The translations under genes were made by a program, and so were the position numbers. The notes beneath the pieces were generated by a model, which was not told the DNA's origin, did not search any database, and saw only the letters and a program-made list of their open reading frames with translations. Of a DNA stretch of 64,000 nucleotides, positions 39,001-42,000 are shown piece after piece; within the stretch, counting starts at the first letter, position 1, and each line of letters opens with the position of its first letter. Origin of the DNA: Paramacrobiotus metropolitanus (taxonomy: Eukaryota > Tardigrada > Eutardigrada > Parachela > Macrobiotidae); contig NW_026570228.1 of NCBI RefSeq assembly GCF_019649055.1, forward strand, positions 2,170,001 to 2,234,000, read 5' to 3'.

Positions 39001-42000
39001 TGCCAGCAGGACACAGTCCGAATTAGATTCACCTGCACGCGAGAAATAAAAGCGTTTCAGTGTGCACATGGCTAAATTAATTTAAATAAAGCTTTACAAA
39101 ATTGGCGCTAAATATTTTACGAATTTACCCCTTACAAAGTTGAGGAGGCATTATACCCGTGTAGTAATCATGAACGATTTTAATAACATCCGGCATAAGT
39201 TTATTTAATTTTCGCGATATAAATCACAGTCGGACGACTTTTCAGCTTTCCCTTAGATCAGCGGTATATTTGATGTAAGAATGTTTCAAGTGTTTTGCAC
39301 TTGTTCAACATCCACTAACGTGCCTATTTGCTGAATTCTTCGTTTGACCAATGGAATTCGGAATGCTTTTTTATTGCGGTTGTTAAACCAGCGGAGTCGT
39401 TGATTGGGAGAGAAATCGTATAATCCACACACAGTGCATGCCGTCAAGCTGAAGACGGCTGCTAACCAGATTTACGAGGATATTAATAGCTAATGGATTT
39501 TTATTAATAGATAACGGAGTGAATTCGAGAGTTTTTCACTGTTATCGCTGCATGACTTCAGCTGGCACTTTCGTTGCGGACCAGGAACTGTGTGTCACCG
39601 ATCATAGAAATGCCTGAATCGGTCATAAGGGATACCTGAATGCTTACATTTTACGCGTGAAAACATTAGGTTGTGATAGATTTAGGGTGGTGGTTCATTG
39701 ATGAAATGTCGCATAAATCATACCTGCTGCGTTTTTACAAATACATTAAAACCAGAATAAGGAATAAACAGTAAGCGTTTACAGCGATGATTCGGACACT
39801 TGAAGAAGAAGACTCAGCATGAACAAAGGCGTGCGATCACGGACAGGCACTGTATTCGGCGAGTGTGTCTGAATACTCTACACTTTTGGAATTAAATTAA
39901 TCTACTAAATTTATTTTAATTTCGAATCAATATCAATAAAGCAGCATTAACTCGAAAACTTATTTTCTGACTTGGGAAAACTGAGAATTTTACGACTTGG
40001 ATCTGCTCAGAAATCTAAGTCTTCCTAAGAAATACATTACCGTTTGCATTTTGCCTTTACTGTTATGTGAATACAATGATAAATTTGACTGCAAATGTAC
40101 GCAAAATTTAATGATTAATCAATTCATCGTTAAATAGATTACCAAATAATATGGTGAGTTTTTTTGTAGACTTTCACTGCTTGGTGTAATTCCCATCTGC
40201 GCAAGGCCGGAACCCAGATTGACAACATTGAAGAGGACTTCCAAAATGGATTAAAGTTGATGTTGTTGCTGGAAGTAAGCGGATTTATAAATATCGTGCT
40301 TTGTTTTGTTTTCTTGACCTTTGCGCGGCTGGAAATGCAACTCCGCTGATTAAAATTACTTTGTTTAGATTCTTTCCGGTGAGCAGCTCCCCAAGCCCGA
40401 CCGCGGCAAGATGAGATTCCACAAAATTGCCAACGTGAACAAGGCATTGGATTTCATTGCCAGCAAAGGCGTGCGCTTGGTGTCCATCGGTGCCGAAGGT
40501 GTGTTTTATCTCGCAAAGCGTCCTGTAATAAGTTGGAACCAACGAAAACTTCCCTTTAAATTTCTATCAGTAACAAAAATTAATATCCTTGTAAGTAGCT
40601 AAAAAAATTTGGAAAATGTACTGTAATTTATTAATACGGATGCAAGTGAGCTGTTTCAATGTTTGGTTTGCATATTTCTAAGTAATTTTTTACGGTTTTT
40701 GCAGAGATCGTGGATGGTAACGTCAAGATGACGCTGGGTATGATCTGGACGATTATTCTGCGATTTGCCATCCAAGATATTTCCGTTGACGGTATAACAA
40801 TGTCGAAATACACTGCATTTATGAAATTCATAGTCATACGATTATAATTGCATGTTTTCCGTAGAAATGACCGCCAAGGATGGCTTGCTTTTATGGTGCC
40901 AGAGAAAAACTGCTCCCTACAAGAACGTCAATGTTCAGAATTTCCACATCAGGTTAGTTATTCAAGGAAGCAAAGCTGATTTCGTTAAAGGTATTGCAGA
41001 ATGTTTACCTACTTGCAGCTGGAAAGATGGTCTGGCGTTTTGCGCTCTTATTCACCGCCATCGTCCTGATTTGATTGATTATAACAAACTATCCAAAGCT
41101 AATCCACTGCAGAATCTGAATCTGGCCTTTGATATCGCCGAGAAATATCTGGATATACCGCGCATGTTGGATGCTGAAGGTACGCGTTTTACGGTTTTTA
41201 TGAATTCTAATGCTGTATTGTACTTACTACTTACTGGTGATGGGCTTTCCTTTCTTATCTGTTCTTCACATTTGTTGAGTGTGTTTTTTAAAGCTCGTCA
41301 TGTTTCGTGTGCGGCTTTTGCGATATTTACGCTGTCTTTCACAACGACTGGATTTTTTTATCACAGACTTTTTTTGAAACGCACTGGATTTCGTTAAATT
41401 GATACTTTTTGCAGTGATAGCGGTGTTTTATTGACACGTGTATCTGTCAGTGAACAAGAGCGCGGTAGCGTCATATCATGCAGTGCGGTTTTAATTGACA
41501 GAAAGTTTGAATTATTGATTCGCAGTGATTACGTATTCTTTTGTCTTCCTATCGTCGAGATTGAAAAAGCCATATTTTATCAGATATGGTTGACATGCCG
41601 AAGCCGGACGAGCGAGCAGTCATGACATATGTGTCCTGCTTTTATCATGCGTTCGCCAACCAAAATCAGGTACTTTGTCGACATGGTACAAAGAATTACC
41701 GCTCCTGATTTCCGTGATATGTTGAACGCACGACGCAAAATTAACGCGTTGGTTTAGTTTTTTGTGTTCTGCGTTTGTGAGTGCATGTTTTCCTTTCGGG
41801 TTCTCCTTTTCTTCCCTGTGAATTTCGTATAACTGGTTGTAATCCCCATAACAAATGCACGTGTGTGTAAATGCATTGCAGAAATCGTAGCCAATGAACG
41901 GCCTGATGAACGTTCCATAATAACCTACGTGTCCAGTTATTATCACCATTTTACACATGCGCAAGAGGTAAAATTTGTTTGTTTTACCGATACATTGCTA

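What the first reader, a model, noticed from the sequence alone, without database searches (positions are those of the whole stretch)
41584..41967. Duplicated, phase-matched exon pair at the end of the alpha-actinin CH2 domain
Exons 7a and 7b are both exactly 86 bases, enter in phase 1 and leave in phase 0, and encode related 29-residue segments (about 12 identities). Splicing both would break the frame (172 is not a multiple of 3), so they must be used one at a time. The segment covers the last helix of CH2 and the start of the neck to the rod, where it could tune actin binding. Vertebrate and fly alpha-actinins have alternative exons, but whether this pair matches any known one is unclear to me.
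Basis: partly seen in the sequence, partly recalled or inferred. Interest (0 to 1): 0.72.

Follow-up and report, generated by a model that had tools for sequence, protein, structure and literature searches.

The report
Alternative exon pair in alpha-actinin
An animal alpha-actinin gene carries two old copies of the exon that ends its actin-binding domain, very probably used one at a time to make muscle-type and non-muscle-type protein; it is a clear case of a kind already known in fly and human actinin genes.

Summary
Window 36042-45656 (+) is an alpha-actinin gene (920 aa with either exon). Exons 7a (41584-41669) and 7b (41882-41967) are both 86 nt, phase 1 in, phase 0 out, and encode 29 residues with 12 identities. 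Of 109 open AG-86nt-GT candidates in the window, only these two resemble each other. Using both exons stops translation at codon 288, using neither at codon 258, so only one-at-a-time mRNAs are productive.

Synonymous sites are saturated (third-position identity 7 of 29, 23.5% expected), so the pair is old and both copies are constrained. 7a is closest to muscle ACTN2 (22 of 29), 7b to non-muscle ACTN1 (17-18 of 29). The same segment is alternatively spliced in human ACTN4, very probably in ACTN2, and the fly gene is spliced within the actin-binding domain. So: a new member of a known kind. Open: tissue use (no RNA), species (no genome held), and shared descent with the vertebrate exon types (AU test undecided, p = 0.138).

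The parts
36042..45656 (+). alpha-actinin gene, coding part (ATG in exon 1 to stop in exon 18); 18 coding exons plus the alternative one; 920 aa; untranslated ends not determined
   Evidence: gene model with GT-AG introns throughout; Pfam CH x2, spectrin x4, EF-hand families
41019..41179 (+). constitutive exon 6 (CH2), leaves in phase 1
41584..41669 (+). exon 7a, 86 nt, [29 protein letters not shown], muscle-type residues
   Evidence: 22 of 29 identical to ACTN2
41882..41967 (+). exon 7b, 86 nt, [29 protein letters not shown], non-muscle-type residues
   Evidence: 17-18 of 29 identical to ACTN1
42293..42385 (+). constitutive exon 8 (neck); joined directly to exon 6 it reads ...GAA GGC TGA, an immediate stop
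41670..41881 (+). intron between 7a and 7b: longest AG-free stretch before a 3' splice site of the 18 introns (98 nt; next 87) and its best pyrimidine tract at about 41799-41821; hints at a distant branch point for 7b (inferred, weak)
42140..42196 (+). two ACUAAY-type sites (42140 and 42191) in the intron downstream of 7b, possible STAR/QKI-type sites; statistically weak
   Evidence: 2 seen, shuffle mean 0.54, reached in 100 of 1000 shuffles

Best explanation
7a and 7b are an old tandem exon duplication in an animal alpha-actinin gene, used as mutually exclusive alternatives. Each encodes the last part of CH2 and the first residues of the neck. SHOWN from sequence: equal length, same phases, usable splice sites, open frame with either exon, early stops with both or neither, saturated synonymous sites with most family-invariant residues kept in both copies. 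INFERRED: each mRNA takes one exon, chosen by tissue-specific splicing factors; wrong products (both or none) are degraded by nonsense-mediated decay; 7a, with ACTN2/3-type residues, is the muscle form and 7b the non-muscle or general form. By alignment, the residues whose mutation in ACTN4 raises actin binding (K255, T259, S262, Y265) are Arg, Thr, Ser and Tyr in both exons, while the exons differ around them (Cys/Ser, Phe/Tyr, Ala/His), so they most likely adjust the closed-open balance of CH1-CH2, and hence actin affinity, rather than switch it on or off.
For: Gene model and frame consequences. Uniqueness of the pair among 109 candidates; only 7a of 16 internal exons has a copy in a flanking intron (11 of 16 had no candidate to score). 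Third-position identity 7 of 29 against 23.5% expected, second-position 22 of 29. Of 15 positions invariant in six other actinin segments, 7a keeps 12 and 7b keeps 12. At the 6 positions that separate the ACTN1/4 from the ACTN2/3 segments, 7a matches the muscle residue at 5 and the non-muscle residue at 0; 7b matches the non-muscle residue at 4 (the last of them only through a crystal-construct residue) and the muscle residue at 0; two of the six positions (28, 29) are missing in one or two chains. Both 82-aa isoform segments match the Pfam CH domain (82.2 and 76.5 bits). Splice scores of both exons lie within the range of the other exons (acceptors 1.6 and 4.7, range -1.7 to 12.6; donors 6.9 and 8.2, range 3.5 to 9.3). 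Precedents, passages read only: human ACTN4 exon 8 replacement (PMC4539665), ACTN2 8a/8b, where skipping gives a stop in exon 9 and NMD (PMC7782589), fly Actn spliced in the actin-binding domain into non-muscle, larval and adult muscle forms (PMC4550062, PMC3315501), and the remark that most invertebrates probably do likewise (PMC8329775). Actin-binding residues: PMC6820738.
Against: No transcript evidence and no tissue data; the muscle/non-muscle assignment rests on six residue positions. One of the six comparison segments, 7AW8, mixes the two types at those positions (K, A, Q29 muscle-like; S, Q28 non-muscle-like), so the sorting is not clean across the family. Muscleblind-type YGCY sites, which cluster near the fly exons, are not enriched here (8 seen, shuffle mean 11.6). 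ACUAAY sites are only weakly in excess (100 of 1000 shuffles reach the count). TGTGT (CELF-type) is denser in the three alternative introns than in the others (9.56 per kb against 2.64, and 3.31 in intron 1) and above shuffles (9 seen, mean 4.8, 46 of 1000), but the other introns exceed their shuffles too (18 seen, mean 11.3, 4 of 200); with seven patterns tried this is a lead, not a result. No sign of competing RNA pairing (z -0.16, -0.57, 0.36; whole region -0.27).
Confidence: 0.85

Rival explanations
1. The pair arose by a duplication in this animal's own lineage, independent of the vertebrate exon 8 pairs, and the muscle/non-muscle residue sorting is convergent.
For: The AU test does not reject 7a+7b as each other's closest relatives (p = 0.138). 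PMC9741552 (passages) lists actinin genes among those with tandem exon events in vertebrates, fly and worm and reads the list as convergent evolution; the places of the fly and worm events are not given in what I read, and the human event it illustrates is the EF-hand one. The two ACTN4 alternative exons are up to 89% alike (PMC5740500 passage; I take these to be the exon 8 pair), much closer than 7a and 7b. 7AW8 mixes the two residue types.
Against: 7a and 7b share no residue that is absent from the six other segments compared, and are less like each other (12 of 29) than 7a is like ACTN2 (22 of 29) or 7b like ACTN1 (17-18 of 29). The duplication tree is 5.6 log units worse than the best. Only 29 sites, so weak.
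Confidence: 0.5
2. The pair serves mainly as an off switch: both-in or both-out mRNAs are made on purpose in some tissues and degraded, lowering alpha-actinin.
For: Both error products stop within a few codons of the wrong junction. In QKI-deficient heart cells, skipping of ACTN2 exon 8 and NMD lower ACTN2 strongly (PMC7782589 passages).
Against: One conventional exon skip would do this without a second coding copy; both copies keep an open frame and 12 of 15 family-invariant residues.
Confidence: 0.08
3. One exon (7b, the more diverged) is a relic that is no longer spliced in.
For: The best match of 7b among the six segments (18 of 29) is lower than that of 7a (22 of 29), and its branch is about twice as long (0.46 against 0.23 in the best tree); no RNA evidence of use.
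Against: 7b has the better acceptor and donor scores, an intact frame, and saturated third with conserved second positions; it is nearer to ACTN1 than 7a is (18 against 16 of 29). A relic of that age would have decayed.
Confidence: 0.04
4. The exclusion is enforced in cis, by a distant branch point of 7b or by competing RNA helices, rather than mainly by trans-acting factors and NMD.
For: Intron 7a-7b has the longest AG-free zone of 18 introns (98 nt) with its best pyrimidine tract about 61-83 nt upstream of 7b; distant branch points near the upstream 5' splice site enforce exclusion in OGDH (start of abstract of PMC7969005 in the listing; paper not opened).
Against: A constitutive intron of 94 nt has an AG-free zone of 87 nt, so the 98 nt are not exceptional. 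The implied branch point would lie roughly 90-130 nt from the 7a donor, while whole introns of 53-69 nt are spliced in this gene, so crowding is unlikely. No RNA pairing above shuffles. No U12-type donor.
Confidence: 0.2

Closest known systems
Human ACTN4 alternative exon 8 (ACTN4-SpEx8)
   Same: Same segment of CH2; exon 8 is replaced by another exon; one of the three changes (S264C) is the same Ser/Cys position that separates 7b from 7a
   Different: ACTN4 exons differ at 3 residues against 17 of 29 here; reported in normal testis and small-cell lung cancer rather than as a muscle/non-muscle pair
Human/mouse ACTN2 exons 8a and 8b
   Same: Alternative exons at what is very probably the same place; skipping gives a stop in the next exon and NMD, as predicted here
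   Different: QKI control shown there, only weak motif support here; the sequences of 8a and 8b were not available to compare
Drosophila Actn (isoforms RA, RB, RC)
   Same: One invertebrate gene with alternative splicing in the actin-binding domain giving non-muscle, larval and adult muscle forms
   Different: Larval form is 67 nt longer (402 against 335 bp RT-PCR products); regulated by Muscleblind; here both exons are 86 nt and YGCY sites are not enriched
Vertebrate ACTN1/ACTN4 exon 19a/19b (EF-hand)
   Same: Mutually exclusive homologous exons in the same gene family
   Different: Different domain (EF-hand, calcium sensitivity); exons 16 and 17 of this gene gave no open same-phase candidate in their flanking introns, exon 18 was not scanned

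Membership tests
Animal alpha-actinin gene | Two CH domains, four spectrin repeats, C-terminal EF-hand domain | tested here: met
   Pfam: CH 2 stretches, Spectrin 4 stretches, EFhand_Ca_insen and EF-hand_1
Tandem duplicated mutually exclusive exons (criteria of PMC3228551) | Neighbouring exons of about equal length | tested here: met
   86 and 86 nt
Tandem duplicated mutually exclusive exons (criteria of PMC3228551) | Same splice-site pattern and reading frame | tested here: met
   AG/GT at both, phase 1 in, phase 0 out; 920-aa frame with either
Tandem duplicated mutually exclusive exons (criteria of PMC3228551) | Homologous protein sequence | tested here: met
   12 of 29 identical, BLOSUM62 75, reached by 0 of 100,000 shuffles
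Tandem duplicated mutually exclusive exons (criteria of PMC3228551) | mRNAs contain one exon or the other, not both | not testable with these tools
   no RNA data; both or neither would stop early
Vertebrate ACTN exon 8 alternative pair (ACTN4, ACTN2) | Same segment of CH2 | tested here: met
   ungapped alignment to ACTN1/2/3/4 chains and the residues listed for ACTN4-SpEx8; for ACTN2 8a/8b only by exon number
Vertebrate ACTN exon 8 alternative pair (ACTN4, ACTN2) | Exact same exon boundaries | not tested
   no vertebrate genome on hand; consistent with a frame-shifting exon 8 in ACTN2
Vertebrate ACTN exon 8 alternative pair (ACTN4, ACTN2) | Common descent of the two exon types | tested here: inconclusive
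   residue-sorted tree better by 4.8 log units than 7a+7b together, but AU p = 0.138 for the latter; 29 sites, 8 segments
QKI/STAR-regulated muscle exon | ACUAAY sites flanking the exon | tested here: inconclusive
   2 sites downstream of 7b; 100 of 1000 shuffles reach 2
Muscleblind-regulated exon as in fly Actn | Cluster of YGCY sites in the flanking introns | tested here: not met
   8 in 941 bases, shuffle mean 11.6

The most novel reading that the evidence does not exclude
The pair descends from one exon pair already present in the ancestor of protostomes and vertebrates, with a muscle type (P-K-P-D-E-R ... S-C-F-Y) and a non-muscle type (R-P-D-E ... S-S). After the vertebrate genome duplications the ACTN2/3 genes settled on the first type and the ACTN1/4 genes on the second as their main form, so that a splicing choice in one gene became a choice between genes.
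Probability: 0.25. Interest if true: 0.5.

Novelty: new member of a known kind. Interest (0 to 1): 0.28.

Why it matters
Alpha-actinin is a main cross-linker of actin in Z-discs and stress fibres, and this segment holds residues (K255, T259, S262, Y265 in ACTN4) that set how tightly it grips actin. A second, strongly diverged natural version of it (17 of 29 residues changed) in one gene is a ready-made set of tolerated variants for testing that tuning. If the muscle/non-muscle sorting is ancestral, it would tie the vertebrate gene family's division of labour to an older splicing switch. As a finding on its own it fits an established pattern.

Tried and rejected
Species and relatives: the window's genome is not held; searching prokaryote genome contigs (6 pattern matches, none a relative) and viral contigs (none) for actinin relatives gave nothing, as expected for an animal gene.

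Further copies: no third exon of this type seen; the 12 open candidates of any tested length (56-116 nt in steps of 3) in 41180-42292 are 7a, 7b and overlapping or unrelated frames. An AG 9 nt into 7b (acceptor at 41891) would also give an open frame; probably incidental.

Competing RNA structure: duplex energies between the three introns (60 shuffles each) and the fold of the whole region (20 shuffles) equal the controls; a crude measure on one genome. Muscleblind-type, RBFOX-type and PTB-type patterns do not exceed shuffles, although the PTB-type pattern is denser here than in the gene's other introns (7.44 against 2.64 per kb). U12-type donors and crowding of splice sites rejected.

EF-hand alternative exons as in vertebrate ACTN1/4: no candidate for exons 16 and 17.

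Papers: 15 were opened, passages only. The paper most to the point (Lek et al. 2010, Mol Biol Evol, on actinin gene structure and splicing) is not held, nor is Roulier et al. 1992 on the fly gene; they may already describe such pairs in other invertebrates.

An earlier count gave the next-best score against 7a as -7; that is the + strand only, -2 holds for both strands.

Full report
What is there. The + strand from 36042 to 45656 encodes an alpha-actinin: 18 coding exons plus one alternative, all introns GT-AG, 920 residues, two CH domains, four spectrin repeats and a C-terminal EF-hand region. The gene content says animal (inference); no genome is held for the window and I could not name the species, nor count its actinin genes.

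The observation. Exon 7a is 41584-41669 and exon 7b is 41882-41967. Each is 86 nt, starts in phase 1 after exon 6 (ends 41179) and ends in phase 0 before exon 8 (starts 42293). They encode [29 protein letters not shown] and [29 protein letters not shown], 12 of 29 identical. With 7a alone or 7b alone the frame runs to 920 residues. With both, translation stops at codon 288, two residues past the 7a-7b junction; with neither, it stops at codon 258, the first full codon after the exon 6-exon 8 junction codon.

Chance. I listed every open AG-86nt-GT stretch with the right phase on both strands of the 64 kb (54 + 55 = 109, the pair included). The pair scores 75 (BLOSUM62, ungapped) against each other; the best other candidate scores -2 against 7a and 5 against 7b, and 0 of 100,000 residue shuffles reach 75. 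Looking for same-phase copies (within 15 nt of the original length) in the flanking introns of 16 internal exons, only 7a has one (relative score 0.47). Eleven of the 16 had no open candidate and the other four at best 0.0; since many introns are short this scan has limited power. Exons 16 and 17, which carry EF-hand sequence, are among those without a candidate; first and last exons were not scanned.

Age and constraint. Third codon positions agree at 7 of 29, which is what base composition alone predicts (23.5%); second positions agree at 22 of 29 and first at 18 of 29. Of 12 codons with the same amino acid only 3 are the same codon. The duplication is therefore old and both copies have been kept by selection on the protein. 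Of 15 positions invariant among six other actinin segments, each exon keeps 12.

Type of each exon. The best solved matches of the 7a form are ACTN2 chains (22 of 29 identical in the exon segment). The 7b form matches ACTN1 chains best: 18 of 29 to 2eyi (human), 17 of 29 to 1sjj (chicken), the difference being a construct-end residue (species labels partly recalled). Six positions separate the ACTN1/4 from the ACTN2/3 segments; 7a carries the muscle residue at five and the non-muscle residue at none, 7b the non-muscle residue at four (one of them through the construct-end residue) and the muscle residue at none. No residue is shared by 7a and 7b alone. Against a clean sorting, the sixth outside segment, 7AW8, mixes the two types. 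A tree that groups 7a with ACTN2/3 and 7b with ACTN1/4 is better by 4.8 log units than one that keeps 7a and 7b together, but the latter is not rejected (AU p = 0.138, 29 sites). So common descent with vertebrate exon types is suggested, not established. Also against it, PMC9741552 (passages) lists actinin genes with tandem exon events in vertebrates, fly and worm as a case of convergence (without giving their places in fly and worm in what I read), and the two ACTN4 alternative exons are up to 89% alike (PMC5740500 passage).

Place in the protein. The CH match of Pfam ends at residue 78 of the 82-residue segments built with either exon, so about 25 of the 29 residues are the end of CH2 and the rest the start of the neck. 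Residues whose mutation raises actin binding in ACTN4 (K255E, T259I, S262P; also Y265E) lie in this segment (PMC6820738 passages; PMC4539665 passages; the two papers' numbering differs by one, I aligned by motif). Their equivalents are Arg, Thr, Ser and Tyr in both exons; between and around them the exons differ (Ala/Ser, Val/Ile, Met/Ile, Cys/Ser, Phe/Tyr, Ala/His). This fits a quantitative tuning of the CH1-CH2 closed-open balance; that step is inference.

How the choice may be made. Both exons have usable splice sites: scored with a matrix from this gene's other splice sites, 7b is better at acceptor (4.7 against 1.6) and donor (8.2 against 6.9), both within the range of the others, so 7b may be the default and 7a may need activation (inference). 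The intron between them is 212 nt while introns of 53-69 nt exist in the gene, so crowding is not the reason for exclusion; no donor is of the U12 type. Pairing between introns is at the level of shuffles. The 7a-7b intron has the longest AG-free zone of the 18 introns (98 nt), its best pyrimidine tract (about 41799-41821) lies 61-83 nt upstream of 7b, and its end is pyrimidine-poor (10 of 20, a low shared with three other introns); this resembles acceptors with a distant branch point, but a constitutive 94-nt intron has an AG-free zone of 87 nt, so it is only a hint. Two ACUAAY sites lie downstream of 7b, a weak excess; TGTGT (CELF-type) sites are about three times denser in the alternative introns than in the others, also only a lead. 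Muscleblind-type sites are not enriched. For comparison, QKI acts on human ACTN2 exon 8a/8b: in heart cells lacking QKI the exon is skipped, a stop appears in exon 9 and the mRNA is degraded by NMD (PMC7782589 passages; skipping of exon 8 also in QKI-deficient mouse heart, PMC10202634 passages); CELF protein ETR-1 affects atn-1 splicing in the worm (PMC8734324 passages). The predicted consequence of skipping here is the same as in ACTN2.

What is known. Human ACTN4 swaps exon 8 for another, changing N249G, A251L and S264C; the last is the same Ser/Cys difference that separates 7b from 7a. Human ACTN2 has exons 8a and 8b. The fly gene is alternatively spliced in the actin-binding domain into non-muscle, larval and adult muscle forms, under Muscleblind (PMC4550062 and PMC3315501 passages), and one paper supposes the same for most invertebrates (PMC8329775 passage). 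Worm atn-1 also has a tandem exon event, place not given in what I read. What is particular here is the depth of divergence and the muscle-like/non-muscle-like sorting.

Verdict. Observation confirmed, interpretation supported, new member of a known kind; exclusivity in mRNA and tissue use remain to be shown by RNA data.

Noticed in passing
window 32751-33217: A 467-bp element with perfect 25-bp terminal inverted repeats (ATACCGTAATTATCGAATTTGCACC) and C-rich repetitive inside, between minus-strand exons of what looks like an MTA-family gene; looks like a small non-autonomous DNA transposon.
   Followed up: partly
window 45507-45656: The protein ends in ...FARTLYQF, without the C-terminal -SDL/-TDL ending that I recall for most animal alpha-actinins (PDZ ligand); the canonical ending may be lost in this lineage.
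   Followed up: no
window 31815-34959 (-): Minus-strand open frames with an MTA R1 domain (31815-32591) and a BAH domain (34219-34959): probably an MTA (NuRD subunit) gene next to the actinin gene.
   Followed up: no
window 58312-58767 and 62127-62624 (-): Two minus-strand pieces of rhodopsin-family receptors (7tm_1 profile positions 69-192 and 1-70), possibly exons of one receptor gene.
   Followed up: no
PDB chain 7aw8_A: This alpha-actinin actin-binding domain is the second-best match to the CH2 segment with exon 7b (only rank 12) and has an animal-like segment (ISSYYHTF). I recall that it is the protein said to come from the malletwood tree (PMC8329775, by its abstract the only plant with an alpha-actinin gene); an animal contaminant of the plant genome would be worth checking.
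   Followed up: partly
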